From IMG/VR virus record IMGVR_UViG_3300022918_000015, positions 1 to 52,578 of that record: 52,578 nucleotides of DNA, one strand, 5' to 3'. A program made the position numbers and the translations under genes. This DNA is from a virus. The notes under the pieces were generated by a model. The model had not been told where the DNA came from. It did not search any database and saw only the letters and a program-made list of their open reading frames with translations. Of this stretch, positions 29,504 through 49,857 are shown piece by piece. Position 1 is the stretch's first letter. Each line of letters begins with the position of its first letter.

Positions 29504-29776
29504 TTAATTTGGTTTTTTAATTATTTTATATTTAAAATTTACTCTTATTGTTTCTTCACAACAAAATAATTCTCCGCTTTTTAATTGTAACATGAATCCT
29601 GGATTACTATCACTATTCCAACAAACATTTTGAGGTACTGTTATAAATAAATCTCCAATTATATATTGATAATAAAAATTAGGATTATTTTTAATCTCAG
29701 TTATTTCTATTATTGTTCCTGGATTTAAATCTCTTATTGGAAATTCATCATTCCATTTTTCTTTCAAAAAAGGCAT
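29504..29776 (-). CDS. Member of the 'PGTIIEI' small beta-protein family
   Basis: A 90-residue protein with the family pattern: an N-terminal LNPGTIIEITEI strand-turn, a central hydrophobic strand (YIIGDLFITVPQNVCWN), a GxL/F turn (LKSGELFCC) and a C-terminal YKIIKK. At least eight other genes in the window share this layout; this copy stands apart from the 35.9-38.4 kb cluster, immediately upstream of the DnaB-like gene. Role unknown. Confidence 0.65.
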   Translation of the reverse strand: MPFLKEKWNDEFPIRDLNPGTIIEITEIKNNPNFYYQYIIGDLFITVPQNVCWNSDSNPGFMLQLKSGELFCCEETIRVNFKYKIIKKPN

Positions 29777-30889
29777 TTATTTTTCTTTTAATAATTTATA
29801 ATATTCCTTCATCTTAACATTGTAGTCTTTATCTTTCGGAGTAGGCAATTCTTTAAATATATTATGTTTTCCGTCAAAATATAAAGGAAGAGTTACGTTA
29901 GGCATTCCAAATCTTGATTTTAATATAGTTATACTTCTAAAACTATCTCCAAATGATTCTGGAGTATTATTATCAATATCAAATCCTTTAAACGTTTCTA
30001 ATCCAAATCTTTCAGGAGCAAATAATCCTATAACTATTTGATCATCTCTTACAACTATTTTATTATCAGCAACACCGTCTAGAGTAGGTAATATTTTAGC
30101 TAAAATACTATCTCCTTTTGAAGTAAATTGTTGTTTATCTGATTCTAAAGCTTGCTGTTGAATATTTAATACAGTCCATCTCCATTTTTTTGTAATTATT
30201 TTTCTGGCTATTTTAGTATGCCATTTGGATATAGTCTTATGATGATTCAAGAAAGCATCAGTTTCCTTATCATATTGTTCTTCAAGAAGGCTTATATGAT
30301 CACACACAACTAACACAACCTGACTTGGATCATTTGCTATATATTCTTCTTCATTGGTAACTGAATTAATTTCAAACTTACCCATTTTAGAAGCAAATAA
30401 TTTACATTTATTAAATATAGAATCTGGAGTATAACAATTATCAACAACCTTTATATAAGTCATTATTAAACTAACCTCTTTCTGAGCCATTTTAAGCGCA
30501 TCTAAGACAGTTTGATCTAAAGGTGTTGTCTGCATACCCTGAAGTTGAAATATATCAACAGAGACGTTGTATTTACGTTTTAAGATATGAATAAACAATC
30601 CATCTATAAACTCTTGTTCAGATTCTTCTAAAGCAAAATAAATAACCTGAAAATTAATTCCGTATTTAATTGCATAAAATATAGGCTGATATATAAAAGC
30701 ATATTTACTAAAATTAGTTTTGGCTGCCCCAGTACCAGATGTTACTTTATACATTAAACCAGGTATAATTCCAGGTATATATTTTGTCAATCTAGGTAAT
30801 CCAAAAAACGGAATAGGTTTTATTTTTCCTGATATAATATCAGATCTACGTTGCTCGTAGTATTGTATGCGTTTTTCAACTGAATTCAA
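29777..30889 (-). CDS. DnaB-like replicative helicase
   Basis: A 370-residue SF4 RecA-core protein that should unwind DNA at the phage fork. The P-loop is SGTGAAKT (K57), with alanine where the usual glycine precedes Lys. FALEESEQEF provides the post-Walker-A acidic residue, VVLVVCDHISLL is Walker B (D197), and a late FGMPN... block is typical of the core's end. It lacks the large N-terminal DnaB domain, so it is a minimal helicase. It abuts the metallophosphatase gene and lies 4.7 kb upstream of the primase in the same transcript direction. Confidence 0.85.
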   Translation of the reverse strand: MNSVEKRIQYYEQRRSDIISGKIKPIPFFGLPRLTKYIPGIIPGLMYKVTSGTGAAKTNFSKYAFIYQPIFYAIKYGINFQVIYFALEESEQEFIDGLFIHILKRKYNVSVDIFQLQGMQTTPLDQTVLDALKMAQKEVSLIMTYIKVVDNCYTPDSIFNKCKLFASKMGKFEINSVTNEEEYIANDPSQVVLVVCDHISLLEEQYDKETDAFLNHHKTISKWHTKIARKIITKKWRWTVLNIQQQALESDKQQFTSKGDSILAKILPTLDGVADNKIVVRDDQIVIGLFAPERFGLETFKGFDIDNNTPESFGDSFRSITILKSRFGMPNVTLPLYFDGKHNIFKELPTPKDKDYNVKMKEYYKLLKEK

Positions 30890-31675
30890 TTAACTTCTTC
30901 CTTTAAACTCTGGATACAATATATTTCCATTGTCTGATTGCCAAAATTGTTTAGTATCAATATCCATAATAGAAATCTTACCGTGCCAACCACCTCCAGT
31001 GTCTAAATTCCAGATATTAGCAGCATTCATTGGTTCGTCTTTCTTCCAAAATTGAGTACTTGTATGACCTATATAAATTTCATTAAAATCTTCAACCATA
31101 TTAAATTTATCTCCAGGTTTTCTACCCGATTCAAAACTTAATGCTTGCTTCCATAAATCTCTATCCCACCAGAAATTAAATTCTGATTGTTCTTCAAGTT
31201 TATAGTTTCTATCAAATCCTCCGTGAATAAATAAATTATTCTTATCATCTATATAATATGGTATTTGATTTTTAAAAAATTCAATATGAGAATCTGAAAT
31301 ATCATTAGTTCTTATAGATTCAGTAAAGTGTTCACCTCCTCCCGGAGTAAATTGTAATCCATACCAAGAAGTTCCTGGTCTTGAATGATTTAAATAACTT
31401 AATCCAGTTGCCTTTTGACCTTGTTGCCAATTACTAGGATTGTCACCTGTTTCTAACCAAGTATTAAACCAATCATCATGATTACCTTTTACAGCTACTA
31501 AATTCTTTATTTTAAGCAATTCTTCAACTACTTCGAATGATTCACTATGACCATCAACAACATCCCCAAGAGATATTAACGTGTCATTATTATTATCAAA
31601 TCCACATCTTTCTAAAACTTGAACTAATCCTTTATGATTTCCATGTATATCACCTATTACTAGATTTCTCTTCAT
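30890..31675 (-). CDS. Calcineurin-like metallophosphatase
   Basis: A 261-residue protein with the three hallmark motifs of the PPP/ApaH-type phosphoesterases: GDIHG (8-12), GDVVDG (37-42) and GNHDD (64-68), plus later histidines (FIHGG; YIGHTS). Such phage enzymes (lambda-type protein phosphatase, ApaH-like) remove phosphate from proteins or hydrolyse dinucleoside polyphosphates. The substrate cannot be read from sequence. It abuts the DnaB-like gene. Confidence 0.9.
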   Translation of the reverse strand: MKRNLVIGDIHGNHKGLVQVLERCGFDNNNDTLISLGDVVDGHSESFEVVEELLKIKNLVAVKGNHDDWFNTWLETGDNPSNWQQGQKATGLSYLNHSRPGTSWYGLQFTPGGGEHFTESIRTNDISDSHIEFFKNQIPYYIDDKNNLFIHGGFDRNYKLEEQSEFNFWWDRDLWKQALSFESGRKPGDKFNMVEDFNEIYIGHTSTQFWKKDEPMNAANIWNLDTGGGWHGKISIMDIDTKQFWQSDNGNILYPEFKGRS

Positions 31676-31838
31676 GTTCTTTAATTTTTTCTTTAAGTAA
31701 AGAAATAGGAAAAGTAGCTAGTTGATATTCTCCATCAGCAGTATCAAAACAAACTTTATCACCAATTAATTTCAAACTATGATCTCTAAAATAAGTATCA
31801 TCATCTCCCTTTTCAAAATATACTTCAGTTACATCCAT
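31650..31838 (-). CDS. Unknown small acidic protein
   Basis: A 62-residue protein (MDVTEVYFEKGDDDTYFRD; VCFDTADGEYQLATF) that appears beta-rich with a charged C-terminal helix. It overlaps both neighbours (26 bases with the phosphatase start, 10 bases with the upstream gene). Function unknown. Confidence 0.55.
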   Translation of the reverse strand: MDVTEVYFEKGDDDTYFRDHSLKLIGDKVCFDTADGEYQLATFPISLLKEKIKEHEEKSSNR

Positions 31839-32377
31839 TTCTCTTTATTTATCTCTTTGTTATTATCTTCAAGTAGATATGCATATTTCTCGAAATTAGC
31901 TTGATTAAGCCACGTTTCTGAAGCATTCATATATTCTATGTTTCCAGTTTTTTTACGCCATTTAATCTCAGCATTTAAAACATCAATAGCATTCTTTTGA
32001 AGATTTTCTTTGTTTCTAAATAAGCTATCCCACTTTTTTCTAAGTTTATCTACAGCCATTCCTTTATATTCTCCTCCACTTCCAGAAGGCGATAAATATC
32101 TACCGTTAGGTGTTTTAATGGGAAAAGTGCTTAAAAACGTATAGAATAAATCTTTTGGTAAAAACATATCTATAGCCTTAGATCTAAGTATAATAGCATC
32201 TTCAGTTATTTTTATAAATCCTCTTTCCTGAAGAGAATCTTCGTTAATATTTTCTATTAACTTATATAGATTTTTTATTTTATTATCTTCTCCAACAAAT
32301 AAGTTTCTTAAATATAGATATTCACTTATTGTTAAATTGTTTTTGAATATATCATCTATATTCATTGAAATATCCAT
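31829..32377 (-). CDS. Unknown protein, possible helicase-loader or replisome-organiser like
   Basis: A 182-residue frame; starts at 32377 or 32365 are both possible. The middle holds FPIKTPNGRYLSPSGSGGEY and the C-terminal part reads NAIDVLNAEIKWRKKTG... ASETWLNQANFEKY. The 'TWLNQ..(F/W)E' segment resembles the C-terminal region of phage replisome organisers, and the gene lies two genes upstream of the DnaB-like helicase. The role is therefore a weak inference from one segment and position. Confidence 0.55.
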   Translation of the reverse strand: MDISMNIDDIFKNNLTISEYLYLRNLFVGEDNKIKNLYKLIENINEDSLQERGFIKITEDAIILRSKAIDMFLPKDLFYTFLSTFPIKTPNGRYLSPSGSGGEYKGMAVDKLRKKWDSLFRNKENLQKNAIDVLNAEIKWRKKTGNIEYMNASETWLNQANFEKYAYLLEDNNKEINKEKWM

Positions 32378-32528
32378 AGTTTTCTATTTTTCTACTTTCT
32401 ATTTCTAATTCTGTTAAATCTAAAAATACTTCTTTAGATTTTTTATATTCTTTTTTATTTCTTAATTTAAAAACAGGCTTAGTTTTATTTCTTTTTTCTA
32501 AACCTGTTTTTATTTTTAATCTAATCAT
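32352..32528 (-). CDS. 58-residue basic protein
   Basis: A short frame (MIRLKIKTGLEKRNKTKPVF ... ESRKIENYGYFNEYR), strongly basic in its first 35 residues. Its start overlaps the upstream stop as ATGA and its end overlaps the downstream gene, so it fills a 147-base spacer between mapped genes. The coupling supports translation; the function is unknown. Confidence 0.5.
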   Translation of the reverse strand: MIRLKIKTGLEKRNKTKPVFKLRNKKEYKKSKEVFLDLTELEIESRKIENYGYFNEYR

Positions 32529-32758
32529 TTATTTAAGTCAGTTCTTAATTCAATCAAACTGTTAATAACATCATCTAAATGTTCTATTGGAATTGCAATA
32601 GAAAGATGACTTGTTATGTCATTCATTTTTGGATTTATAGATTCAATTTTTATACAATCTCTAGGATATTCTACTTTAGAAAATGAAATTCCAGATTGAT
32701 TTGGACTTTTACTCATAGCTTCAGAAAAAACAACTCTGTTATATTTTACTATTCCCAT
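32525..32758 (-). CDS. Unknown small protein
   Basis: A 77-residue protein with a beta-like N-terminus (IVKYNRVVFSEAMSKS) and a helical C-terminus (IEHLDDVINSLIELRTDL). It lies 2 bases downstream of the VWA gene, which suggests it is co-translated with the VWA/MoxR pair. Unknown role. Confidence 0.6.
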   Translation of the reverse strand: MGIVKYNRVVFSEAMSKSPNQSGISFSKVEYPRDCIKIESINPKMNDITSHLSIAIPIEHLDDVINSLIELRTDLNK

Positions 32759-32760
32759 AA

Positions 32761-34116
32761 TTAATATCTATTATACATTTGTTCAACAACATACCAACCA
32801 CCAGAAGAAGCACAAAGCTCTTTTAGTCCAGGATTTTCTGTACCAAAGCATAATGCGTTAATTTTAACTCCCTTAGATTTGACCTCTTTAGGATTAACAT
32901 GATCATCTCCATCTAGCATGATTACAATCTCAGGATCGTGAAATGTAGTATCAGTAGCAATCTCATCAATAGTTTCTTGTAAACAATAACCAATATGAGT
33001 ACCACCACCACTAGGTCTTCTCAAGCTTATATCTTTAAATAAATCCTGAGCTTCTTTAAGGGTTTTAACTTCTTTATATCCATATCGTTTAGACTCATAT
33101 AAATAAAAGTTAAGTTTAGCCTTACCTTGCATTACTCCTTCGAGGTAATTCAATAAAGTAGCTCTAACATAAGATTGTTTTTGAATACTTCCCATTGAAC
33201 CAGAATCATCAAGCATTAATGTTACAACTTGCTTTCTTGTTTCAGGTAGTACCTTTTCTTTGATAGTTAATTCTTTTTTTGCAAGCTTATCATCAAAATT
33301 AGGCAATACCATTTGAGTCTTACTAGCCTTCATTACTTGACTATAACTAGACATATTTTTGATACGTTTCTTATTAGATTTATTGTTTTCAACTAACTTT
33401 GTTTCCAAAGAAGTTTCCATTCCAATTTTTTCTTCTAAATAAGTCTTAACTTTAATATCTCTTAATATACCAGGATTAATTGGCATATCAGGAACCTTCT
33501 CAGCAGCATATATATTAGCAATAGTTGGAGATAAATCATAAAGAAAATCTCTAACACATGAAATAACATCTTTTGATAAAGCTTGGTTAGAAGGTTTAGA
33601 TGAACTATCACCTCCATTATCATCAGGAACTCCTTTACTCATCTCTTTAATCAAATCAGATAATGATTGAGGATCTAAAGTAGTTTTACCGTTTCCTTTT
33701 GGATTTTGTTGAGCAGAATTAGTTTCATTAGACTTACTTAAATGCACCATGTACATCAAAGTATTTAATGTTTTATCCATTGGTGAATAACCTGGGCATT
33801 CTGGATAATTTAAACCTTCAAGAAACTTTAAAGTATATCCATAATAAGCTTTTTCAGACTCAGTCAATTCTCTATTCAATACCTCTTTACAAGTATCTAG
33901 TGAAAATACATGATTTTTAAAATCAAAATCAATACTTTCTTCTCTTTCTTGAGTAAATAAATAATATAAATCTTCTATGATTGGTGGGACTTTAATAAAG
34001 CCACCACCAAATTCATAGTTTTTATCACGAGCTAACTCGTTTATATAATCTAACTCAGGCAAAGTAATTGTATTAGTAAGGTTTATAGTAAACCCTTCTG
34101 TTCTTCCATTACTCAT
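32761..34116 (-). CDS. VWA-domain protein partner of the MoxR ATPase
   Basis: A 451-residue protein. The C-terminal domain (about 295-451) is a von Willebrand A domain with the MIDAS sequence DDSGS (D303-x-S305-x-S307), a GGGTHIG loop providing the threonine, and a later MLDGDD strand. The N-terminal 290 residues are helical with a Ser/Asn-rich linker. VWA proteins partner with MoxR-type AAA+ ATPases, here encoded 9 bases upstream, to remodel or assemble other complexes with metal-dependent binding. The target is unknown. Confidence 0.85.
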   Translation of the reverse strand: MSNGRTEGFTINLTNTITLPELDYINELARDKNYEFGGGFIKVPPIIEDLYYLFTQEREESIDFDFKNHVFSLDTCKEVLNRELTESEKAYYGYTLKFLEGLNYPECPGYSPMDKTLNTLMYMVHLSKSNETNSAQQNPKGNGKTTLDPQSLSDLIKEMSKGVPDDNGGDSSSKPSNQALSKDVISCVRDFLYDLSPTIANIYAAEKVPDMPINPGILRDIKVKTYLEEKIGMETSLETKLVENNKSNKKRIKNMSSYSQVMKASKTQMVLPNFDDKLAKKELTIKEKVLPETRKQVVTLMLDDSGSMGSIQKQSYVRATLLNYLEGVMQGKAKLNFYLYESKRYGYKEVKTLKEAQDLFKDISLRRPSGGGTHIGYCLQETIDEIATDTTFHDPEIVIMLDGDDHVNPKEVKSKGVKINALCFGTENPGLKELCASSGGWYVVEQMYNRY

Positions 34117-34125
34117 ATTTTCTTT

Positions 34126-35433
34126 TTATTTCTTTAATTGTTCAATTATTTCTTTAACTTCAGTCTTTTTCTTACCTGCTCTGTCCATATTTTTGGCAGA
34201 CCATTTATGAATATCCATCAATGAAACAACATATTTAAGCTTGTCCATTTTGATTGCAGCAGAAGTTTCATCAATCTCTACCTTAACATCTTCTCCTGTT
34301 CTTGATTTATGTTCTCCAATAATCAAGTCAAGCAATTTTGCATTAGTATCGATTTCTCCTAAATTATTATTTTTAACATAATCAGCAATCATTCTGAACA
34401 TTTCTTCATCAGCCGTTTCTTGTTCTTTATCTTTATTTTCTTTATAATACTTATTCAATATTTCTTTGTCAATATCATAAATATATTTCAAATCTCCACC
34501 ATCACAGTATAATTTTGCAGCGTGAATAGCCGTTCTCGGAGAAACAAAATGTGATTTATCATTCATTCCGTTATTGATAGATAAAATTTCAGATAACTCA
34601 ATAAGTTTACCTTTATTTCTATTGAAGAACGTATCTCCAAATACTTTTTTAAATAAACTTGTAAAATTATTTTTGCTATAAGAATCCCATTCTACTTTCA
34701 AAGTCAATGGAAAACGTTGTGCTAAGGCTTCTAAACTATCATCCTCAGAAAAATCTTCTTTAGACTTATTTGTAAGACCAATAAATATTTTAGTCTTACA
34801 AGGGTGTACTTGATTACCTTTTCTAGCTTTTTTAGATGTCATAACATCTTTAAGAGCCAATAGAACTTGTGGTGGAGCATCAAAGATTTCTTCAAATACA
34901 ACAACCTCATGTTCTAAAAAGCTATTTTTAAATAGATATTCTAATTCACCCGTATCTTTAAATTTCTTAATATTGATGCCGCCAAACAATCCTTCTTCAG
35001 TTAAACCGTCTCCACAAGTTAATACAAATGGTTCTTCTGTAATTAATCCTTCTTTTTTCATTAAGTTAAGAATCAATTCAGTACCTTCTGATTTATTATG
35101 ACCACCACGACCATACAAGATAACATTTTGATTAAGTCTCACACCTCTTGTAAGGGCATCTGCCATATCTTCCATGAATATAGATGATTTACATACTTCT
35201 GCAAGAATTTTTGCGTGAGTTGGATCGTAATTAGCTCCAGTGGCTACTTCAATCAAGTCTTTACTAATCTGAAAAGGATCTACCTTGAAATAACCTTGCT
35301 TTTGAATTTTTTCATATTCACTATCTGGAATAACTAAACTTAAGCCTTCAAGTAATTTATAATCTTGTTCTTCAATAACAGGAAATATTTGTTTTAAATC
35401 TACACTTTCAATACTTTTAAATACTATTTTCAT
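34126..35433 (-). CDS. MoxR-like AAA+ ATPase
   Basis: A 435-residue protein. The nucleotide-binding loop reads GRGGHNKS (108-115), with Asn in place of the usual Gly before Lys114. VVVFEE (177-182) is Walker B, a sensor-1-like IFIGLTNKS follows, and an arginine-finger-like ALAQRFP comes later. The order and the adjacent VWA gene identify the MoxR/CobS group. Such pairs act as chaperones or remodellers, for example in metal insertion or complex maturation. A conserved but altered P-loop raises the question of ATPase activity. Confidence 0.82.
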   Translation of the reverse strand: MKIVFKSIESVDLKQIFPVIEEQDYKLLEGLSLVIPDSEYEKIQKQGYFKVDPFQISKDLIEVATGANYDPTHAKILAEVCKSSIFMEDMADALTRGVRLNQNVILYGRGGHNKSEGTELILNLMKKEGLITEEPFVLTCGDGLTEEGLFGGINIKKFKDTGELEYLFKNSFLEHEVVVFEEIFDAPPQVLLALKDVMTSKKARKGNQVHPCKTKIFIGLTNKSKEDFSEDDSLEALAQRFPLTLKVEWDSYSKNNFTSLFKKVFGDTFFNRNKGKLIELSEILSINNGMNDKSHFVSPRTAIHAAKLYCDGGDLKYIYDIDKEILNKYYKENKDKEQETADEEMFRMIADYVKNNNLGEIDTNAKLLDLIIGEHKSRTGEDVKVEIDETSAAIKMDKLKYVVSLMDIHKWSAKNMDRAGKKKTEVKEIIEQLKK

Positions 35434-35492
35434 TTTATATAATTTTCTTCTTTTATTATTTATTTTATTTAACTTTATTTCTTATTATTTGA

Positions 35493-35936
35493 TTATAATA
35501 ATCCAGCTTTAATTGTATTAATCAACATATGGGTATCGGTTATATCAATTTGAGCTATTGTAATATCATCTATTACTTTTTGCATCTCTCTTGGCATACT
35601 TTCCCAATCTGAATTTTTAATATGGTAAATTGGTTTAATAGATTTAATTCTTAAATCAACAAGTTCTTTATTAATTTTATTATTAATTATTTCATCTTTA
35701 CTTGATACAGTAAAACCTACTTTTGTTTCGTATTTTGAACCAAACTCAACTTTCAATAACTTTTCAATCTCAGCCTTAACCTTTAAAGTTGGATCTTGAG
35801 ATTTAATTTTTTCTACTTCATCTTGATAGACCTTAGAGTTAATTATTGATTTATTGTATTTTTCATTAACTTCGTTCACTTCTTCAAGTATTCTTTTAGC
35901 TAACGTAACGATCTCTGTTCTATTTAATTTTTTCAT
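35493..35936 (-). CDS. Unknown coiled-coil protein
   Basis: A 147-residue protein: charged helices with heptad-like spacing in the first 70 residues (RILEEVNEVNEKYNKSII; EIEKLLKVEFGSKY), then a mixed segment and a hydrophobic C-terminal helix (THMLINTIKAGLL). It lies 59 bases upstream of the MoxR gene, so it may be its client or adaptor; this is inferred from position only. Confidence 0.6.
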   Translation of the reverse strand: MKKLNRTEIVTLAKRILEEVNEVNEKYNKSIINSKVYQDEVEKIKSQDPTLKVKAEIEKLLKVEFGSKYETKVGFTVSSKDEIINNKINKELVDLRIKSIKPIYHIKNSDWESMPREMQKVIDDITIAQIDITDTHMLINTIKAGLL

Positions 35937-35954
35937 TCTTTAATTATTATTTTG

Positions 35955-36218
35955 TTAAATGACTTTTTTCATTATTTTATAATTCATGCCTCTAGGCATA
36001 GCTCTTTTAAATGTTTCTCCGGTTTTTAAGCAAACAAATTCACTTCTGTCAGTATTCATTACTAATCTACCATTACGATTTAATTTATCACTTTCTTTAT
36101 AAATTAATTCTATAATAGTCCCAGGAAATAAAGAGCTCATTGAAAAATAATTATCATTTTGATTACCATAATTATTGTGATATTCTTTCTTTAATTTTAA
36201 ATCCTCATATCTATTCAT
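35955..36218 (-). CDS. Member of the 'PGTIIEI' small beta-protein family
   Basis: An 87-residue protein with LFPGTIIELIYKES, then GRLVMNTDRSEFVCLKTGE and MNYKIMKKVI, matching the strand-turn, 'C-L-K-T-G' and terminal Y-K-I pattern of the family. It overlaps the upstream copy by 4 bases. First of a near-continuous run of paralogs. Confidence 0.65.
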   Translation of the reverse strand: MNRYEDLKLKKEYHNNYGNQNDNYFSMSSLFPGTIIELIYKESDKLNRNGRLVMNTDRSEFVCLKTGETFKRAMPRGMNYKIMKKVI

Positions 36219-36463
36219 TTTATTTCTTTTATTATTTCATAAGTATAACCTTCTAGAAGATTTCCCCAAAATGTTCCGACATCAAAATCTTCTTTAGAAA
36301 AAATACAGACTCCGACTCTAGTCAAGTCTCCATCATCCTGTACCCTCATTATATATGGATTTAGTGTCACGCTGGTAATTTTAATTACAGATCCTAATTT
36401 CATTTTGTAAAAATAATTATCTATATCGTTATGAGTATTATTTTTAACCACAATCCCAGTCAT
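36215..36463 (-). CDS. Member of the 'PGTIIEI' family (divergent)
   Basis: An 82-residue protein with MKLGSVIKITSVTLN as the motif strand, a central GDLTRVGVCIFSKED, and YTYEIIKEIK at the end. The first 15 residues before the motif are unlike the other copies. It overlaps the upstream unrelated gene by 20 bases. Confidence 0.6.
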   Translation of the reverse strand: MTGIVVKNNTHNDIDNYFYKMKLGSVIKITSVTLNPYIMRVQDDGDLTRVGVCIFSKEDFDVGTFWGNLLEGYTYEIIKEIK

Positions 36464-36986
36464 AATTCATATTTTTTATAGCTTTAAATATATTATATTC
36501 ACTAAAATATTCTTCATATCTATTTATAAAGCAAGTATGATCTTTCTTGTTATCGAATAAATACATACCATATATATCCAAAACTTCTTTCATATTTACT
36601 AATCTATGATCATAAATTGTTACATTTCTAGATTTAATAATTCTATTTATAAAACTATTATTTTTAAAATCAACAAATTCATTTTTAAAAATCATTTCTA
36701 ATTTTTTACGAGTATAGGCTGTTCCTGTATTGATACTAGTGCTTGATGTTAATGGATGATATAATAATTCGGTTTGAATATTTTCTGACTTGCAATTGTT
36801 GACTATACTAAGTAAATTTTTATTGAAATCTTTGTAATTTTCATCACATATTAATGGTACTTCAAGACTAAATATTCTATTATATTTAATATTTATATTC
36901 GAATATATTAAATAAAGTAATCTAATTTGCCATTCCCCTTTAGCTGAAATAATAATGTTCTGACTAAAATCCGGTTGTATATTCAT
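36444..36986 (-). CDS. Unknown protein inside the paralog cluster
   Basis: A 180-residue protein unlike its neighbours: an N-terminal SQNIIISAKGEWQIRLLYLI, a middle with several Asn, Tyr and Ile strands, and a C-terminal aromatic helix (INRYEEYFSEYNIFKAI). No motif is recognised. It interrupts the run of small beta proteins and overlaps both neighbours by about 20 bases. Confidence 0.58.
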   Translation of the reverse strand: MNIQPDFSQNIIISAKGEWQIRLLYLIYSNINIKYNRIFSLEVPLICDENYKDFNKNLLSIVNNCKSENIQTELLYHPLTSSTSINTGTAYTRKKLEMIFKNEFVDFKNNSFINRIIKSRNVTIYDHRLVNMKEVLDIYGMYLFDNKKDHTCFINRYEEYFSEYNIFKAIKNMNYDWDCG

Positions 36987-37200
36987 CTCTTCTTTTTATT
37001 ATTTCAACTGATATTAAATGAGAGTCGTTTAAAGCTGGAGAATCATCATCATAAAGTTGAAAATCATTTATATTTACTAACCAATATTGAATTTCATCTA
37101 AAACAATAAAAACATCTTCATGTATATTGTTAAACCAAGAAAATTTTATTCTTAATATATCGCCTGCTTCATAATCTGATTTATTCAATTTATTAGCCAT
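36964..37200 (-). CDS. Member of the 'PGTIIEI' family
   Basis: A 78-residue protein with DYEAGDILRIKFSWF as the motif strand, a VFIVLDEIQYWLVNI middle, and a C-terminus containing ISVEIIKRR. The Gly and alternating hydrophobic pattern match the family. It is coupled to the next copy by an 8-base overlap. Confidence 0.6.
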   Translation of the reverse strand: MANKLNKSDYEAGDILRIKFSWFNNIHEDVFIVLDEIQYWLVNINDFQLYDDDSPALNDSHLISVEIIKRRDEYTTGF

Positions 37201-37414
37201 TTTTTAACCCTCCTCTCATTACTTCAATAACAGTATCCTCTTTTGTATAAAAACTGCTTCTGCAAAATTTTGCGGTAGTTAAATTAATAGCTTGAGCATA
37301 AGTATCTTGAACCTTTACAGGAACTGCAAAAACTAAGTATAATTTATCCTCAACACCTGGTGCTGATATTTTTATTATACTTCCAGCAATATAATCATCC
37401 CATTCTATTTTCAT
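37193..37414 (-). CDS. Member of the 'PGTIIEI' family
   Basis: A 73-residue protein: YIAGSIIKISAPGVEDKLYL, then AQAINLTTAKFC and TVIEVMRGG. This follows the family layout of an early G-S/T-I-I-K/E-I strand, a central N-L-x-T strand and a terminal I-E-V strand. One-base overlap with the upstream gene. Confidence 0.62.
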   Translation of the reverse strand: MKIEWDDYIAGSIIKISAPGVEDKLYLVFAVPVKVQDTYAQAINLTTAKFCRSSFYTKEDTVIEVMRGGLKNG

Positions 37415-37620
37415 TAACTGCCCATATTATAGTATTTTCCTTGAATAAATTGACAATCTTCATCATCAACTGTATTTAAAGCATCTGATCTTCTAACTCT
37501 AGCATTCTCAAATGAGAATTTTCTAAGTTTATTTATTGAATTAGTAACAGCTGCTTTTGTGGCGGTTGTTATATTCTTGTTTTTAGTATTATCTTGACCT
37601 ATATTCATCTTATTGTTCAT
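37414..37620 (-). CDS. Small basic protein, not in the paralog family
   Basis: A 68-residue protein with a Thr/Asn-rich N-terminus and a central basic helix (INKLRKFSFENARVRRSDAL), then an acidic turn (DDEDC). It could bind nucleic acid. Its place within the paralog run and TAATG coupling suggest the cluster is one transcript. Unknown function. Confidence 0.55.
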   Translation of the reverse strand: MNNKMNIGQDNTKNKNITTATKAAVTNSINKLRKFSFENARVRRSDALNTVDDEDCQFIQGKYYNMGS

Positions 37621-37939
37621 TTAAAATTTCAATATCAATTAATGTTGTATTGTTTCCATCTTTTGTTTTTAAATATAAAGAAGAGCCAATTAATTGACCT
37701 CTTGTAATATTTACAATGAAAGATGAATTAGAATTTTTAAATCTTGGGTCTGAAGTGTTATTTATAGAAACAAATATATCACCTTCATCTACTACACTAC
37801 TAATTGAAATATTGCTATACAATAGATTTCTATTATAAGCAGTGTCTGATAATTTAAATACAGTTCCCTGTTTTAAATTATTAAAACTAATTTGAAGTAT
37901 TTTCTTTTCTTTCATTATTCTTTTATTTTTCAATATCAT
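37610..37939 (-). CDS. Member of the 'PGTIIEI' family (longest copy)
   Basis: A 109-residue protein with FNNLKQGTVFKLSDTAYN as the motif strand, then GDIFVSINNTSD and a C-terminal LIDIEILNEQ. An insert of about 20 residues (SNSSFIVNITRGQLIG) makes it longer than the others. It lies 3 bases downstream of another copy. Confidence 0.62.
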   Translation of the reverse strand: MILKNKRIMKEKKILQISFNNLKQGTVFKLSDTAYNRNLLYSNISISSVVDEGDIFVSINNTSDPRFKNSNSSFIVNITRGQLIGSSLYLKTKDGNNTTLIDIEILNEQ

Positions 37940-37942
37940 ATC

Positions 37943-38179
37943 TTATCCGTATCTATATATTATAAACTCAAATTCATCTAAATTGTTAGAAAATTCCAAA
38001 TCTCCTGTTTTTAGATTTACACAATAATTATTAGCATTGTTTCTAATTTCAATGCCTTTTATTCTTATATATAGTTTATTATTATATAAGCATTTAAATA
38101 TGGAGCCAATAGGAATATTTAAAATCCTACATTTAACTATTTCATTTTCTTTATTATAATCTTTGCTTAGTTTACTCAT
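37943..38179 (-). CDS. Member of the 'PGTIIEI' family
   Basis: A 78-residue protein: ILNIPIGSIFKCLYNNKLYI, then NNYCVNLKTGDLEF and FEFIIYRYG. The N-L-K-T-G turn is almost identical to the one in the 35955 copy, which makes the common origin visible by eye. Overlaps the upstream copy by 8 bases. Confidence 0.65.
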   Translation of the reverse strand: MSKLSKDYNKENEIVKCRILNIPIGSIFKCLYNNKLYIRIKGIEIRNNANNYCVNLKTGDLEFSNNLDEFEFIIYRYG

Positions 38180-38420
38180 AAGGTAGTCTCATAATTTTAA
38201 AATCAAATCTATATTCTGAAACCGTCCATAGATCAGTTCTACCTGTTTTTACATCAACACCACAACACGTTTGATGTTTATTTCTTTTATAATCTGTGAT
38301 CAAATATAAATCTTTAGGCTTTAATTGTGAATGAGGCGCATCAATAATCTCTATAATAGTACCAGCAGGAAGATTAATAGCCTCGATACTGGTACTTTTA
38401 AAAACATCTCCTTCAGACAC
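38172..38420 (-). CDS. Member of the 'PGTIIEI' family
   Basis: An 82-residue protein: INLPAGTIIEIIDAPHSQL, then CCGVDVKTGRTDL and RFDFKIMRL. This is the clearest copy and, with the 29504 protein, gives the name used here. It is the most upstream member of the main run and lies 2 bases below an unrelated gene. Confidence 0.68.
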   Translation of the reverse strand: MSEGDVFKSTSIEAINLPAGTIIEIIDAPHSQLKPKDLYLITDYKRNKHQTCCGVDVKTGRTDLWTVSEYRFDFKIMRLPYE

Positions 38421-41175: not shown

Positions 41176-41474
41176 TTGTATTTATTTTTTAACATATCAA
41201 AAAATGTTTTAGTATCTATAATGGTTCTATCTACACATTCTATTCGAAGAGCAATATCCATTTCATCTCCACAGAAACATATTAAAGAAGGATAAGAATT
41301 TAATATTCGAGACAAAGATTGATCAGAAAAACCTACCGTTTTATTATACCATTTATAATCAAAATGAATTAAAATATCATTTAACTCGTTTCTAGTTTCT
41401 TCGTCACTAATATCAAAAGCATATTTATCACTTAACAACGCATTAAATAGTTCGTCATGTAGATCAGCATTCAT
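41172..41474 (-). CDS. Member of the 'LDFLDxxW' paralog family
   Basis: A 100-residue protein: RNELNDILIHFDYKWYNKTVGF, then SDQSLSRIL and a final TFFDMLKNKYK. It shares the core pattern with the 40840 copy directly downstream. It lies 5 bases from the AAA ATPase gene. Confidence 0.6.
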   Translation of the reverse strand: MNADLHDELFNALLSDKYAFDISDEETRNELNDILIHFDYKWYNKTVGFSDQSLSRILNSYPSLICFCGDEMDIALRIECVDRTIIDTKTFFDMLKNKYK

Positions 41475-42277: not shown

Positions 42278-42290
42278 AATTATTTTATTA

Positions 42291-42354
42291 AAAGTGTTGA
42301 TCTGACCTTTAACCAGATAGTACCACGGCTTAGAGCTGTCGGTAGCAACACTTT
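42291..42354 (-). ncRNA. Three-way-junction RNA, copy A
   Basis: A closing helix of 9 bp (AAAGTGTTG at 42291-42299 with CAACACTTT at 42346-42354) encloses two arms. One is ATCTG...CAGAT (42300-42304 with 42314-42318). The other is TACC...GGTA (42321-42324 with 42341-42344), extended by ACGGC...GCTGT. Single-base (G42345) and two-base (AG 42319-42320) junction linkers remain. A second copy at 44741-44801 has the same arms and linkers with different stem sequence. Located between the ABC ATPase and the AAA ATPase genes. Confidence 0.72.
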
Positions 42355-42359
42355 ATTAT

Positions 42360-43172
42360 TTAACTTCTTAATATATCTTCTCTAATTTTCTTAGACAATT
42401 CTAAATGCTTTTCACCAAAATGCTCCCAAGCTAATCCCATAGCTTTTAAATCATAATGAGATATTATAGTGCTAACTTGATCTTCGGGATTTTCATGTCC
42501 TAAAATATAAATACTATCAGCTAAATTAACAGCTAAGTTAATATCATGAGTTGAAAATATAACTGTATTTAAATCATTAGTTTGAGAAATATGTTCAAAG
42601 CTTTCTTTAAGTTTCTCTATATTACCTACATCTAAACCTGAAGCTGGTTCATCAAAAACAATATACTTCTTTGAAGTAAATAATTGTTCTAGAATAGCAG
42701 TTCTTTGACGTTGACCTCCAGATAGCTCATTTGGATATTGATCCTTTTGAGACAGCAATTTCCATTCATTTAAAGCATCTACAATCATAGTATGTTTTTC
42801 TGCATTAGATAATTTTTGTTTTCTTAATGCAAACTTTAAACATTCATAAACAGTCTTATGTCTAAATAAAGTATAAGCTTGATCAACAAATCCAGCATCC
42901 CCTTCTGATATTATTTTACAGCTATTAGCATTATAATCATCAGATACTAATATTTGACCAGAAATTGGCTTAATTAATCCAGCTAAAGCTTTAAATAATG
43001 TACTTTTACCTCTACCTGATCTACCTAATATTGCAATACATTGACCAGTTATTTTATCTGTTCTGGTAATATTCTTTTCCTCAAGACTAATATCTTTCAG
43101 AATAATTTTATTACCATATCCAATATTTACCTTATCAAGATATAATATTGTATTTTCTAATTTATATTCCAT
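42360..43172 (-). CDS. ABC transporter ATP-binding protein (nitrate/sulfonate/taurine-type)
   Basis: A 270-residue protein with every motif of an importer ATPase: Walker A GRSGRGKS (50-57), Q-loop glutamine (Q98 in FVDQAYTLF), signature LSGGQRQR (150-157), Walker B IVFDE (171-175) and H-loop FSTHD (H209). The order and length resemble SsuB/TauB/ThiZ-type subunits. It lies 2 bases below a small membrane gene and 4 genes below the solute-binding protein. It would energise import of a small anion or vitamin precursor. Phage-encoded importers are rare. Confidence 0.92.
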   Translation of the reverse strand: MEYKLENTILYLDKVNIGYGNKIILKDISLEEKNITRTDKITGQCIAILGRSGRGKSTLFKALAGLIKPISGQILVSDDYNANSCKIISEGDAGFVDQAYTLFRHKTVYECLKFALRKQKLSNAEKHTMIVDALNEWKLLSQKDQYPNELSGGQRQRTAILEQLFTSKKYIVFDEPASGLDVGNIEKLKESFEHISQTNDLNTVIFSTHDINLAVNLADSIYILGHENPEDQVSTIISHYDLKAMGLAWEHFGEKHLELSKKIREDILRS

Positions 43173-43174
43173 AA

Positions 43175-43384
43175 TTAATTAAAATAAGTATATAAATTTC
43201 TACCAAATATTAGCCAAATAATTCCATCAATTAAAAAGAAACCAGTTAGATAATAAAGTACTACAACAAAATACAAAAAACTATAAATTAAAATCATAGT
43301 TATAAAACTTAAACAAAATATTATTCTTTCCTTAAAATTACTTGGCCTACTATCCCAGTAATTACAAAACTCATTTACTGACAT
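43175..43384 (-). CDS. Small single- or double-pass membrane protein within the ABC operon
   Basis: A 69-residue protein with a continuous hydrophobic region from about residue 20 to 60 (IIFCLSFITMILIYSFLYF; VVLYYLTGFFLIDGIIWLI). Two spans with a short turn are likely. It lies 2 bases from both the permease and ATPase genes, so it may be a subunit or regulator of the transporter. Confidence 0.65.
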   Translation of the reverse strand: MSVNEFCNYWDSRPSNFKERIIFCLSFITMILIYSFLYFVVVLYYLTGFFLIDGIIWLIFGRNLYTYFN

Positions 43385-43386
43385 AA

Positions 43387-44166
43387 TTAAAAATTTGAAT
43401 ATCTAAAAAACAACCTTCTTAAACTTATTAAACTATAATCTATAGATTTTCCAATCATTAATATTATAATTTGCAAAGCTATTACTTCACCTTGAGAACC
43501 ATTCTTTTGATTGGTACCAATTAAATAACCTAATCCACCACTAGCAGTATTAATTAATTCTATTACTACAAGCATATTAAATATAATAGCAAGGTTTTGT
43601 CTTACAGCTTCAATAACAAAATCAAAACGACCCTTTATCATTACTTCAAGTATTATCTCCCAACGAGAACACCCTATACTTTTAGCATGATTAATTTCAT
43701 TTTCAATCGATTTCTTTGACAGACTCTGCAATAAACTTGTTATTAAAAATAAACTCATAAATATTACTAATACTGTTACCTGTATATTTCTTGCATTATG
43801 AATTATAATACTAATATATAAACTAATACCAACTAATGGCAAAAATCTAAACGTACTAATTAAATCACAAAATGGCTTAATAACAGGTAGAGGACTTAGG
43901 TATACTACTATACAAGAGATTATAACGCTATATAAACTAGCTTGTAAAAATAATAAGATCGAACTGGAAATATGGGTCATTAACCCTAAATTCCAGGCAC
44001 TAACAAAACCATTAAATACTTGCGTAATTGTTGGAAATAAATGTGTAGTGCCTACAAAACTAGAAATTACCCACCATCCCAGAATAAAAGTTAACCACAA
44101 GAGTATAACTAAATTATTCTGAGATTTGGATAACTCCTCAAAAGGTCTAAATAATTTATTTAGCAT
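43387..44166 (-). CDS. ABC transporter permease (nitrate/sulfonate/taurine-type)
   Basis: A 259-residue protein with about six hydrophobic spans (first at about 20-38, LVILLWLTFILGWWVISSF). The cytoplasmic ATPase-contact loop is visible at about 155-173 (ENEINHAKSIGCSRWEIIL), where a Gly at 165 matches the conserved EAA loop glycine. Late GGLGYLIG and a final span complete the BPD_transp_1 layout of SsuC/TauC-type permeases. It lies 15 bases downstream of the outer-membrane-like gene. Confidence 0.88.
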   Translation of the reverse strand: MLNKLFRPFEELSKSQNNLVILLWLTFILGWWVISSFVGTTHLFPTITQVFNGFVSAWNLGLMTHISSSILLFLQASLYSVIISCIVVYLSPLPVIKPFCDLISTFRFLPLVGISLYISIIIHNARNIQVTVLVIFMSLFLITSLLQSLSKKSIENEINHAKSIGCSRWEIILEVMIKGRFDFVIEAVRQNLAIIFNMLVVIELINTASGGLGYLIGTNQKNGSQGEVIALQIIILMIGKSIDYSLISLRRLFFRYSNF

Positions 44167-44181
44167 TTTTGAGATAACTAA

Positions 44182-44679
44182 TTAAAAACTATAACTAATA
44201 CTAGGAGACAAGTAATTAACTTCATCCCAGTTACTAAAACTAAGACCTATACTCACGTTTTCATGCGTATAACCAATTCCAACTCCAACTTCTGTAAAAT
44301 AATCATCAGATCCAAAATATCCGCCTGCACCTGCAATTAGGCTACCAGTTAAATTTCCCACTAATTTATAATTTGGTGAAATTTTAGCTTCCCAGAAATA
44401 ATTAGTAATCTGATCTTTGTCAAAAACATCAACTAGATTACTTCTTCCAAATACAGCTCCATAAGAGATGTTATTGCAAGTAACACCACCTTCTACTGTG
44501 GCATATGAATTTTCTTGCCAATCTCCTTGAAGATGCATAGATAATCCAAGACTCACATAATGAGTAAGTGTATTTACAGATTTAGTTTCTACAACATCCA
44601 CTTGAGGTTGTTCAATTGTTTGAGCATTCATGCTCATTGCTCCTAAGAACAACATTCCTACGATTAAGAATTTTTTCAT
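44182..44679 (-). CDS. Secreted putative outer-membrane barrel protein
   Basis: A 165-residue protein with a Bacteroidota-type signal peptide (MKKFLIVGMLFLGAMSMNAQ, cut after NAQ). The mature part has alternating strands (SNLVDVFDKDQITNYFWEAK; YVSLGLSMHLQGDW; VGIGYTHENVSIGLSF) and ends in aromatic ISYSF, a typical outer-membrane barrel end. At about 145 residues, it could be a small barrel. It is the first gene of the permease-ATPase part, so it might be the outer-membrane entry point of the importer. Confidence 0.72.
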   Translation of the reverse strand: MKKFLIVGMLFLGAMSMNAQTIEQPQVDVVETKSVNTLTHYVSLGLSMHLQGDWQENSYATVEGGVTCNNISYGAVFGRSNLVDVFDKDQITNYFWEAKISPNYKLVGNLTGSLIAGAGGYFGSDDYFTEVGVGIGYTHENVSIGLSFSNWDEVNYLSPSISYSF

Positions 44680-44699
44680 TTTTTTTGTTTTGTGTTTTA

Positions 44700-44712
44700 A
44701 GTGCTATGCACT
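44700..44712 (-). other. Short perfect palindrome in the barrel-gene leader
   Basis: AGTGC-TAT-GCACT lies 20 bases upstream of the barrel protein start. It could be an operator for a dimeric repressor or a small hairpin in the message. No known consensus is recognised. Confidence 0.35.
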
Positions 44713-44740
44713 ATTAATATTAAATTTAATTAAAAAAAAT

Positions 44741-44801
44741 AAGATATTGATCTGACTTGTTTAAACAGATAGTACGACTTGCAAGAACGTAGCAATAGCT
44801 T
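44741..44801 (-). ncRNA. Three-way-junction RNA, copy B
   Basis: The same fold as 42291-42354. The closing helix is AAGATATTG (44741-44749) with CAATAGCTT (44793-44801, one mismatch). The invariant arm is ATCTG...CAGAT (44750-44754 with 44766-44770) and the second arm TACG...CGTA (44773-44776 with 44788-44791). Linkers are again AG and G. Relative to copy A, the second arm's inner pair changes from C-G to G-C and the closing stem differs, yet pairing is kept, which argues for selection on structure. It lies 61 bases upstream of the barrel gene. Confidence 0.72.
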
Positions 44802-44803
44802 AT

Positions 44804-44853
44804 AAAAGTAAAATGGAAGAGATCGAGAGTTTCCAGTATGCTATTTTACTTTT
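44804..44853 (-). ncRNA. Hairpin next to three-way-junction copy B
   Basis: An 11-bp stem (AAAAGTAAAAT at 44804-44814 with ATTTTACTTTT at 44843-44853) closes 28 bases with an inner GGAA...TTCC pair. It directly precedes copy B on the - strand. It may be part of a two-domain leader, for example a partial terminator or processing signal before the barrel-permease-ATPase genes. Confidence 0.5.
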
Positions 44854-44887
44854 TTATTTTAAAAGAGTTAATTGACTTTATCGCTCT

Positions 44888-45163
44888 TTATAATTTATAA
44901 TGTAATTTATTATTGATAAAATAATTATAATTATCTAATAGAAATCTTTTTCTACATTTAACAGTAGTAGCTTTATAATTTCCAAGATACCAATTACCAT
45001 TTTTATCTAGAATAGCTTTGCTTACATGGTTAAAACATAAATTATTATTAAATATATAAAAATCTTTTTCATTAAAATAAGAAGATTCTCTAAATTTAAA
45101 ATTATGTTCTTTATGATGTAAATAATATAATACTAATCCTGTTATAATAATAAATATATACAT
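44888..45163 (-). CDS. Small single-pass membrane protein
   Basis: A 91-residue protein: one N-terminal span (MYIFIIITGLVLYYLH) and then a soluble, basic, aromatic part (FYIFNNNLCFNHVSKAILD; ATTVKCRKRFLLDNYNYF). Its start is coupled to the stop of the solute-binding-OmpA gene by a 1-base overlap. It is the last gene before the RNA-containing spacer at 44680-44887. Function unknown. Confidence 0.6.
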   Translation of the reverse strand: MYIFIIITGLVLYYLHHKEHNFKFRESSYFNEKDFYIFNNNLCFNHVSKAILDKNGNWYLGNYKATTVKCRKRFLLDNYNYFINNKLHYKL

Positions 45164-47001
45164 TATTTTAAAAGAGTTACTTGAACCCTTCTGTTTTTAT
45201 ACCTACCTTCAGCTGTATTATTATTGCCAATAGGTTTTTTATCTCCCAATCCTTCTACAGATTCAACTGCTTGGAATGGTAAACCTTGATTTTGCAAATA
45301 CTCTAGTACAGCGTTAGCTCTAGATTTAGATAAAATTTGATTTTGATCAGGATTACCGGTATTATCAGTATGGCCTTCAATAATGATTTTAGTTCCCTCA
45401 GCTTGAACAATTAAATTGTATAATTCTTTAAGTTGTTTATCGCTTGAATGCAATATCTCCGAACTACCTGAATTAAAATTGATTTGCCAGCTTCCAGATG
45501 CCATTACAGACGTTAACTTTTTAGAATAGTCTACTTGTTTCACTTCACCTGAATTAATACCTGAAATCGCTTGTAATGACGTCAAATCAACTGCTTTATC
45601 ATAAGGAGTAACTTTTTTAACAGCATCACTGAATCCATTTGGATTAAGATCTGTCAAATAATTAGCAACTTGTTCATAAACAGATTTGTATCTATTAATT
45701 CCATCATCACCTAATCCATAATATTGCAAAGCATCTGCATGATTCATAATTCTAGTACCACCAGCAATTTGACCATTACTTAAAGTTTTACCTTTAAACA
45801 TTTCATACCAATATTGAGGAGATTGATAACCGTAAGTTTTAGCAACACATTGTGAAGCTTTAACTCTCCAATCATCATATAACTTCATTTGATTAGCAGC
45901 AGTATAAGTAGCTTTCAAAATATTAACAACCACGTCTGGGTTAGCATCAGACCATTCTTTTAAGACTATTAAAGTTGTAGTCATTTGATTAGGAAAATCT
46001 TTAGTAGAAGATATAGTTACTGCGTGAGGAACTTTATCAAATATCATTTTATCTCCAGGCAACCAAGTACTACATAAATCAATTTTTCTAGATACAGTCT
46101 TACCTGTTGGCTTACCATCTTTAAGTTCTTTCATGTCATAAACCTTTCCATTTAATTGAGATGCAATATAATCATTTGCACATTCAATAATATTTGGATT
46201 ATGAATAAAGTTTACAGCTTCTGGATCATACGTACCGATGTTTGGATTTACTTTAATACCTTTATTAGCAAATATATAATTCAATGCTACAACCCAGTCA
46301 CCGTCTCCTACAGCAGTTACGATAACAGCTCCTTTAAGATTAGCCGGATTATCAATATATTTTTTATCTCCAATAAGTTTATCTTCTCCATAACTAGCTC
46401 CATAACAAGCCTTAACTACAGCGTGATATTTATCTTCACCAAATTTATCGTCAAGCATTTTATTTAATGTTGATATAAAATAAGGAGCGCCATCACCCAT
46501 AATACTTACTCCGAATGCACTAGTATTGCTTTGTGGATTTAAATTCCCTGAATCAAATTCAGCAGTAAAATTAACCATAGCAGCTTGTAATAGACTAAAA
46601 TCATCCTGACGTCCTATATTAAGATTTACACCATATTTTTCCATTAAACTATTTTCAGAAGTTTGAGGACCGCCATTAGCTACAATCATAGTACTATTAC
46701 CATTCCAAGTATACTCAAGTAAATTATACTTAGTTTTACTTTTTACTTTAGTTGATAAACTGTTTCCTGGCAAATCGATTTTATCTGCTTTAGAAGCGTT
46801 ATCAATTACGGTTCCATCAATTTCCAAATCATTACCTGTAGTAGATTTTAGAAAGTTCATTCCGGGGGCAAAAAAGGCTACTGCTAAATAAGCTATAACG
46901 ATAATAGCTATTACACCCAATACTTTAAGTGTATTACGACCTTTGGGAGTTAGGTTATCCCACCAACTTGTTTTTGTTTGATTTTGATTAAAATTTTCCA
47001 T
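45163..47001 (-). CDS. Membrane-anchored solute-binding protein fused to a C-terminal OmpA domain
   Basis: A 612-residue protein. Residues 26-46 (KVLGVIAIIVIAYLAVAFFA) form an N-terminal membrane anchor. Residues about 70-490 look like a periplasmic solute-binding domain of the NMT1/PstS/nitrate type (MIVANGGPQTSENSLMEKYG, then QAAMVNFTAEF; AVIVTAVGDGDW; TTTLIVLKEW). Residues 497-612 are an OmpA/MotB peptidoglycan-binding domain: FNSGSSEIL, GHTDNTG (543-549) and GRYKNRRV (599-606). This would fix a captured-solute receptor between inner membrane and cell wall, serving the permease and ATPase encoded below. Confidence 0.85.
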   Translation of the reverse strand: MENFNQNQTKTSWWDNLTPKGRNTLKVLGVIAIIVIAYLAVAFFAPGMNFLKSTTGNDLEIDGTVIDNASKADKIDLPGNSLSTKVKSKTKYNLLEYTWNGNSTMIVANGGPQTSENSLMEKYGVNLNIGRQDDFSLLQAAMVNFTAEFDSGNLNPQSNTSAFGVSIMGDGAPYFISTLNKMLDDKFGEDKYHAVVKACYGASYGEDKLIGDKKYIDNPANLKGAVIVTAVGDGDWVVALNYIFANKGIKVNPNIGTYDPEAVNFIHNPNIIECANDYIASQLNGKVYDMKELKDGKPTGKTVSRKIDLCSTWLPGDKMIFDKVPHAVTISSTKDFPNQMTTTLIVLKEWSDANPDVVVNILKATYTAANQMKLYDDWRVKASQCVAKTYGYQSPQYWYEMFKGKTLSNGQIAGGTRIMNHADALQYYGLGDDGINRYKSVYEQVANYLTDLNPNGFSDAVKKVTPYDKAVDLTSLQAISGINSGEVKQVDYSKKLTSVMASGSWQINFNSGSSEILHSSDKQLKELYNLIVQAEGTKIIIEGHTDNTGNPDQNQILSKSRANAVLEYLQNQGLPFQAVESVEGLGDKKPIGNNNTAEGRYKNRRVQVTLLK

Positions 47002-49102: not shown

Positions 49103-49332
49103 ATAAATAGTCTATTTTTAGGTAACTCATACCCATTTTTTGTTAAATATTCAGTTATATTTTCTTTCCAATTTTCTTTAGGTTTTTCAATAAAACACTT
49201 ATAATCTTCAGACATTAAATCTTTAGCTTCAGCTATTTTCCAGCCCTCACTATGTGTTTGATCAACGAATAAATCAGATATTTCATTTAATTCTTCTCTT
49301 GTTAATTCTGTTAATTTTTTTAATTTATTCAT
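49099..49332 (-). CDS. Unknown small protein
   Basis: A 77-residue, acidic, helical protein (LTELTREELNEISDLFVDQ; ENWKENITEYLTKNGYEL). Overlaps neighbours by 4 bases at both ends. It contains no motif; it may be a small regulator. Confidence 0.55.
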   Translation of the reverse strand: MNKLKKLTELTREELNEISDLFVDQTHSEGWKIAEAKDLMSEDYKCFIEKPKENWKENITEYLTKNGYELPKNRLFI

Positions 49333-49631
49333 ATTTTTTCATTTATAATTTTTTCAAATAGATCATCTACATCAATTATTTTAGCCTCAATAGGTAGTTC
49401 TCCTGAAGAATACATACAAGAATTAATTGCTCTATAATATGTTCTATTGCATCCAAATAGTTCTCTCATCATTTCAGGTTTGATTTTGTGATAATCACTA
49501 AGTTCGTTATTCCAAGTAAATCCTAAATAATCTAAAACTTCGCAAAATCTATCTATATTATTATCATTTACTTTAAAGAAATAATAAGGTTGTTTTAAAT
49601 AGTCAATTACTCTTTGTTCAAAATCATTCAT
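49329..49631 (-). CDS. Member of the 'LDFLDxxW' paralog family
   Basis: A 100-residue protein: NNIDRFCEVLDYLGFTWNNEL followed by KIKPEMMRELFG. The pattern matches the copies at 39062, 40840 and 41172, even though this gene lies 8 kb away beyond the envelope block. Overlaps the upstream frame by 8 bases. Confidence 0.6.
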   Translation of the reverse strand: MNDFEQRVIDYLKQPYYFFKVNDNNIDRFCEVLDYLGFTWNNELSDYHKIKPEMMRELFGCNRTYYRAINSCMYSSGELPIEAKIIDVDDLFEKIINEKI

Positions 49632-49857
49632 ATTGACATCTTCTTATTATTTTTACTTTATTCTTTTCTAAGCAATTTGATGTAGACTCAAATATTGTAT
49701 TATAATCATGACCAGAAACTCTATTTATTGAAATGACTCCATTTAATCTTCTTTGATATATTTTACCAATATCTTCTTTTTGATGCCATTCTACTGTTTC
49801 AAATAAATCCCCATCGTTTACATACTTTAAACTTATTACCTCTTCATTATCATTCAT
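49624..49857 (-). CDS. Outlying member of the 'PGTIIEI' family
   Basis: The open frame extends to 49911, but that part lies over a tRNA gene; the ATG at 49857 (MNDNEEVISLKYVNDGDLFE) is preferred, giving 77 residues. The motif strand VNDGDLFETV, central NGVISINRVSG and terminal KVKIIRR fit the family layout. It is the most distant copy from the main cluster. Confidence 0.58.
   Translation of the reverse strand: MNDNEEVISLKYVNDGDLFETVEWHQKEDIGKIYQRRLNGVISINRVSGHDYNTIFESTSNCLEKNKVKIIRRCQYE

What the first reader, a model, noticed from the sequence alone, without database searches (positions are those of the whole stretch)
29504..49857. Nine-member family of small beta-strand proteins
Genes at 29504, 35955, 36215, 36964, 37193, 37610, 37943, 38172 and 49624 share an early G-T/S-I/V-I/F-E/K strand, a central strand with a turn (often L-K-T-G) and a terminal Y-K-I-I strand. 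Six lie in a nearly unbroken run. Expansion of one small fold in a phage suggests variable host-factor inhibitors or anti-defence proteins.
Basis: partly seen in the sequence, partly recalled or inferred. Interest (0 to 1): 0.75.

Follow-up and report, generated by a model that had tools for sequence, protein, structure and literature searches.

The report
Tandem-duplicated small beta-strand phage proteins
A divergent crAss-like phage carries a small, ancient family of about seven or eight tiny beta-strand proteins, most made by duplication of neighbouring genes; they look like accessory proteins used on the host cell, but what they bind is unknown.

Summary
The window is a 52.6-kb fragment of a divergent crAss-like phage. 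All nine genes exist at the stated places, but only part of the claimed family survives testing. Seven (29504, 35955, 36215, 37193, 37610, 37943, 38172) beat shuffled controls in leave-one-out profile tests: summed score 73.8 bits, against maxima of 28 (plain shuffles) and 36 (shuffles keeping the hydrophobic pattern). 36964 is borderline and is carried by its neighbour 37193. 49624 is not supported. Physically adjacent members resemble each other more than chance (32 of 5040 orderings), so the array looks like old tandem duplication. No Pfam, PDB or PADLOC family matches, and no relative appears in 48 other crAss-like records. The only outside link is weak: phrog_7832, which includes early protein gp7 of Pseudomonas phage LUZ24. 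Most likely these are lineage-specific cytoplasmic binding modules with diversified surfaces (pI 4.4 to 9.6). Host modulation or anti-defence is plausible but untested. Blocks of short orphan genes of suspected anti-defence role are already described for crAss-like phages, so this is a new family of a known kind.

The parts
29504..29776 (-). family member, 90 aa, outlying copy next to the DnaB-like helicase gene
   Evidence: LOO 16.8 bits, 0/60 in both shuffles; best pair 37610
35955..36218 (-). family member, 87 aa, LFPGTIIEL / FVCLKTGE / MNYKIMKK
   Evidence: LOO 8.7 bits, 0/60 and 1/60
36215..36463 (-). family member, 82 aa, overlaps 35955 by 4 bp
   Evidence: LOO 6.9 bits, 1/60 and 0/60; neighbour pair with 35955
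36964..37200 (-). probable family member, 78 aa, borderline by sequence
   Evidence: LOO 4.0 bits, 5/60 in both shuffles; best BLAST partner is its neighbour 37193
37193..37414 (-). family member, 73 aa
   Evidence: LOO 9.3 bits, 0/60 in both shuffles
37610..37939 (-). family member, 109 aa, with a longer C-terminal part
   Evidence: LOO 9.2 bits, 0/60 and 1/60; phrog_7832 E=0.0025
37943..38179 (-). family member, 78 aa, compact form (IPIGSIFKC / LYIR / YCVNLKTGDLEF)
   Evidence: LOO 6.8 bits, 2/60 and 5/60; phrog_7832 E=0.0005
38172..38420 (-). family member, 82 aa, GTG start, overlaps 37943 by 8 bp
   Evidence: LOO 10.4 bits, 0/60 in both shuffles
49624..49857 (-). claimed ninth member, 77 aa from ATG at 49857; membership not supported
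   Evidence: LOO 1.7 bits, 26/60 and 42/60 shuffles as good; absent from unbiased clusters of the core
36444..36986 (-). unrelated 180-aa gene inside the run, overlapping both neighbours
   Evidence: not recovered by family HMM; no Pfam match
37414..37620 (-). unrelated 68-aa gene inside the run
   Evidence: not recovered by family HMM; no Pfam or PHROG match

Best explanation
A single small beta-strand protein gene was duplicated in tandem in the ancestry of this crAss-like phage. Seven, probably eight, strongly diverged copies remain, most of them in a block of overlapping, co-directional genes of the minus-strand (non-structural) module. SHOWN: relatedness of seven members above shuffled controls, greater likeness of physical neighbours, gene overlap, absence of detectable relatives in other crAss-like records. 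INFERRED: a shared compact beta fold (possibly an SH3-like barrel) built from a G-T/S-I-I strand, a Y/F strand, a V-N-L-K-T-G hairpin and a last strand; early expression; and action as cytoplasmic protein-binding modules whose surfaces have diverged to engage different host proteins, possibly including defence proteins.
For: Leave-one-out profiles rank held-out members above nearly all other window ORFs. Unbiased clustering recovers the core. Summed LOO score 73.8 bits against a maximum of 27.7 (plain) and 36.2 (hydrophobic-pattern-preserving) in 60 shuffles each. Adjacent members in the run are more alike than in all but 32 of 5040 orderings, which counts for tandem duplication. Coding overlaps of up to 23 bp. 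Strand propensities fall in the expected places. pI 4.4-9.6 and net charge -8 to +6, so no common charged face. Two members hit the same PHROG (7832) at E=0.0005 and 0.0025, while reversed controls reach only 0.12. Yutin et al. 2021 (PMC7886860) describe blocks of short orphan genes in crAss-like phages and suspect anti-defence roles.
Against: No structure could be predicted. Pairwise identities are only about 20-30%. The link to LUZ24 gp7 is weak: a profile of six gp7 sequences does not recover the window proteins. No functional assay or annotated homologue. The next-door MoxR-vWA pair has been proposed as a virion-assembly chaperone in other phages (PMC7824862), so the neighbourhood is not clearly host-takeover.
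Confidence: 0.45

Rival explanations
1. The proteins are subunits of one hetero-oligomer (for example a ring or filament of small beta-barrels, Sm-like in spirit) made in fixed ratio from overlapping genes, rather than independent effectors.
For: Seven or eight paralogues, most in one translationally overlapping block; one presumed small beta fold; different charges could mark complementary interfaces.
Against: 29504 lies 6 kb away from the run; two unrelated genes interrupt it; lengths vary from 73 to 109 aa; no Sm/Lsm profile match in Pfam; no structure available.
Confidence: 0.12
2. They are nucleic-acid- or RNA-polymerase-binding accessory factors (KOW/SH3-like) of the phage transcription or replication machinery.
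For: The phage encodes its own RNA polymerase (810-12874); the 29504 copy adjoins the DnaB-like helicase; other small proteins of the window (13236, 15769) share a PHROG with each other and weakly match KOW/SH3 models.
Against: The family members themselves match no KOW/SH3 model in Pfam; no conserved basic face, with three of the seven core members net acidic.
Confidence: 0.18
3. The likeness is convergence: tiny AT-rich-coded proteins with alternating hydrophobic residues look alike without common descent.
For: Low identities; 49624 and 36964 show how easily the motif is seen by eye; VNLKTG alone occurs in unrelated proteins.
Against: Shuffles that keep the hydrophobic pattern of every protein reach at most 36 bits against 73.8 observed; neighbours are most alike; same-size sets from other phages rarely give such clusters.
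Confidence: 0.1
4. They are direct anti-defence proteins (anti-CRISPR-like inhibitors), each against a different host system.
For: Small orphan proteins in a gene block, as Yutin et al. expected for crAss-like phages (PMC7886860); diversified charges.
Against: No match to any known inhibitor was found; in the same study an anti-CRISPR predictor gave no confident hit in such blocks; no data on this host or its defences.
Confidence: 0.15

Closest known systems
PHROG 7832: LUZ24 gp7 / phage Delta p64 / PA11 early-region protein (77-80 aa, unknown function)
   Same: Length; order L..x..F, Y-strand, V-N-L-K-T-G hairpin; phrog profile matches 37943 (E=0.0005) and 37610 (E=0.0025); small early-region gene among other small genes
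   Different: Pseudomonas podoviruses, one match in Delta; conserved C-terminus EL.C.EV is absent here; a six-sequence gp7 profile does not recover the window proteins
Blocks of short orphan genes in crAss-like phages (Yutin et al. 2021, PMC7886860)
   Same: Short, co-directional, homologue-poor genes in a crAss-like genome
   Different: Here the genes are recognisable paralogues of one another; in eight other crAss-like or related records small-protein paralogue groups were rare and of other kinds
Repeated G-x-F...W-A-E-I-I domains of long proteins in a related phage (L036:9156-11708, L037:2987-4627)
   Same: Same general strand pattern with a G-T start and a hydrophobic last strand; best window hits of its profile are 37610 and 37943
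   Different: Not significant (E 0.11 and 0.25); domains of long proteins, not separate genes

Membership tests
One nine-member paralogous family | Held-out member recovered by a profile of the others better than shuffled sequences | tested here: not met
   Met for seven (at most 5/60 in either null); borderline for 36964 (5/60 in both); not met for 49624 (26/60, 42/60)
One nine-member paralogous family | Same predicted fold | not testable with these tools
Tandem gene array | Neighbouring copies more alike than distant ones | tested here: met
   32 of 5040 orderings score as high
PHROG 7832 (LUZ24 gp7-like) | Profile match above noise | tested here: inconclusive
   E=0.0005 and 0.0025 for two members, reversed controls best 0.12; gp7-only profile gives nothing
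PHROG 7832 (LUZ24 gp7-like) | Conserved C-terminal EL.C.EV | tested here: not met
   Present in Delta, LUZ24, PaP3, PhiCHU, JB8, only partly in PA11; absent in all window members
SH3/KOW-like small barrel | Match to an SH3/KOW profile or PDB chain | tested here: not met
   No Pfam match; PDB search of alignment A4 gives only E=1.4 to an unrelated chain
Anti-defence / host-takeover protein | Inhibits a host factor or defence system | not testable with these tools
   No homologue of tested function; LUZ24 screen names only gp4, gp6, gp9, gp11 as inhibitory (PMC4635203)

The most novel reading that the evidence does not exclude
A phage-specific repertoire of one small beta-fold binding module, expanded by tandem duplication and diversified in surface charge, in which each copy neutralises a different host protein or defence, or the copies build one heteromeric complex.
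Probability: 0.15. Interest if true: 0.7.

Novelty: new member of a known kind. Interest (0 to 1): 0.36.

Why it matters
Phage genomes are full of short orphan genes. A set of paralogues in one genome lets one ask directly whether such genes arise by tandem duplication of a single fold with surface diversification, and gives seven related proteins to screen against the same host. If the copies have different targets, the family would be a natural binding scaffold; if they co-assemble, a new small phage complex.

Tried and rejected
49624 as a member: rejected on sequence. Extra members elsewhere in the window: none (top non-member is a chance piece of the primase). Homologues by tblastn in 50,697 phage records for 29504, 35955, 36964, 37610, 37943, 38172: only chance hits; three of these were inspected and lie in or beside unrelated genes. 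Family profiles in 20 Sak4-related records and 48 RNA-polymerase-related crAss-like records: none. Orthologous region in the closest relative G048 (RNAP 65-69% identical): its contig stops at the equivalent of about window 23.7 kb. Anchors MoxR (twice), helicase (viral and genome collections) and the helicase Walker motif found no syntenic relative. VNLKTG as a diagnostic string: rejected. Profile of the repeats of a related phage: not significant. DNA-level repeats between the copies: none of note among the repeats listed.

Full report
SOURCE. The window is an IMG/VR virus record of 52,578 bases, 27% GC. Its two large plus-strand genes (810-7637, 7637-12874) match the RNA polymerase genes of Cellulophaga phage phi14:2 (Crassvirales, Steigviridae) and other crAss-like phages at 22-31% identity, with a G-S-D-F-D-I-D-K motif. 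One IMG/VR contig (G048) is 65-69% identical there. Nearly everything from 12.9 kb on is on the minus strand and non-structural: ligase, dUTPase, primase, Sak4-like annealing protein, DnaB-like helicase (ligase and dUTPase named from their sequences).

OBSERVATION. The nine genes are real reading frames. Plain BLAST among the nine gives a few weak links (29504-37610, 37610-37943, 35955-36215). Because the set was picked by eye, I tested it in three ways. (a) Leave-one-out HMMs searched against all 157 window ORFs. (b) A seed-by-seed clustering of all 40 small window proteins without using the finding, against random sets of the same size from related phages; it recovered 29504, 35955, 36215, 37610, 37943 and 38172. 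It also found a second paralogue group (39062, 40840, 41172, 49329, perhaps 40333). Four control sets scored high; these are probably sets that held near-identical copies of the same gene from related records. (c) Two null models of 60 shuffles each, one fully permuted and one keeping each protein's pattern of hydrophobic, polar and G/P positions. The summed score is 73.8 bits observed against 12.0 (max 27.7) and 19.1 (max 36.2). Seven members pass individually, 37943 least clearly; 36964 is borderline; 49624 fails.

ORIGIN. In the run 35955-38420 the order of genes carries information: the sum of similarity between adjacent copies is reached by only 32 of 5040 orderings. The neighbour pairs 35955/36215, 36964/37193, 37610/37943 and 37943/38172 contribute. 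With the overlapping reading frames this is what old tandem duplication would leave. There is no notable DNA similarity left between the copies, so the duplications are old or the genes evolve fast.

ANATOMY. The best alignment (A4) shows: a short variable N-terminus; L/Y-x-x-G-[T/S/D]-[I/V]-[I/F/L]-x-I; a strand around L-Y-L/I; a V-[N/D/C]-[L/V]-K-[T/S]-G hairpin in the clearer members; and a last strand ending [Y/F/V]-x-[K/E/I]-I-[I/M]. Crude propensities put strands in these places.

RELATIVES. tblastn in the phage collection found nothing reliable for six members. PHROG 7832 matches 37943 (E=0.0005) and 37610 (E=0.0025), while reversed versions of the nine reach at best 0.12. PHROG 7832 is found in Pseudomonas phage Delta (p64), whose LUZ24 counterpart is gp7, in the early region, and at lower score in PA11. 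The order of strands and the VNLKTG hairpin agree by eye, but a profile of six gp7 sequences does not recover the window proteins, so I treat this as a lead. No relative appears in 48 other crAss-like records; the profile is built from few, divergent rows, so an empty answer there is weak evidence of absence.

FUNCTION. The LUZ24 early-gene screen (PMC4635203) reports inhibition only for gp4, gp6, gp9 and gp11. Yutin et al. (PMC7886860) describe blocks of short orphan genes in crAss-like phages, suspect anti-defence roles, and found no confident anti-CRISPR prediction. The copies here range from pI 4.4 to 9.6, which argues against one shared nucleic-acid or DNA-mimic role and fits diversified protein binding. 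The gene block is followed in transcription order by a MoxR ATPase and a vWA protein (34126, 32761; bpMoxR match), a pair proposed elsewhere to assist virion assembly (PMC7824862). My best reading is a lineage-specific family of small cytoplasmic binding modules; the target is open.

VERDICT. The family is real but smaller than claimed (seven firm, one probable, one rejected). It is a new family of a kind already described in general terms. Interest is moderate, and rests mainly on the chance to test how one fold is diversified within one phage.

Noticed in passing
42360-47001: A whole ABC importer in a phage: ATPase (42360-43172, PF00005), permease (43387-44166, PF00528), a 612-aa protein that looks like a substrate-binding domain fused to OmpA (45163-47001, PF00691), and a possible outer-membrane barrel with signal peptide (44182-44679).
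   Followed up: partly
39062-41474 and 49329-49631: A second, independent family of small paralogues (39062, 40840, 41172, 49329, perhaps 40333, 39399, 39867) recovered by the unbiased clustering.
   Followed up: partly
42278-42359 and 44747-44810 (minus strand): Two intergenic stretches around the ABC genes share G-T-A-C-T-A-T-C-T-G-x-T-T-A-A-A...G-T-C-A-G-A-T-C-A-A by eye; the first folds well (z -2.25), the stretch tried for the second does not (z 0.44); no Rfam match.
   Followed up: partly
32761-35433: MoxR-type AAA ATPase (bpMoxR PF20030, 47 bits) beside a vWA protein, as in phage virion-assembly chaperone pairs or conflict systems.
   Followed up: partly
41480-42277: A 265-aa SMC/OLD-type ATPase N-terminal part, ending early, with weak matches to PtuA and other defence ATPases.
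   Followed up: no
50141-50218: A tRNA found by Rfam but missed by ARAGORN, between the two that ARAGORN lists.
   Followed up: no
30890-31675: A calcineurin-like phosphoesterase 65% identical to one in another crAss-like record (G053) whose other window matches are at most about 42% identical, which suggests transfer.
   Followed up: no
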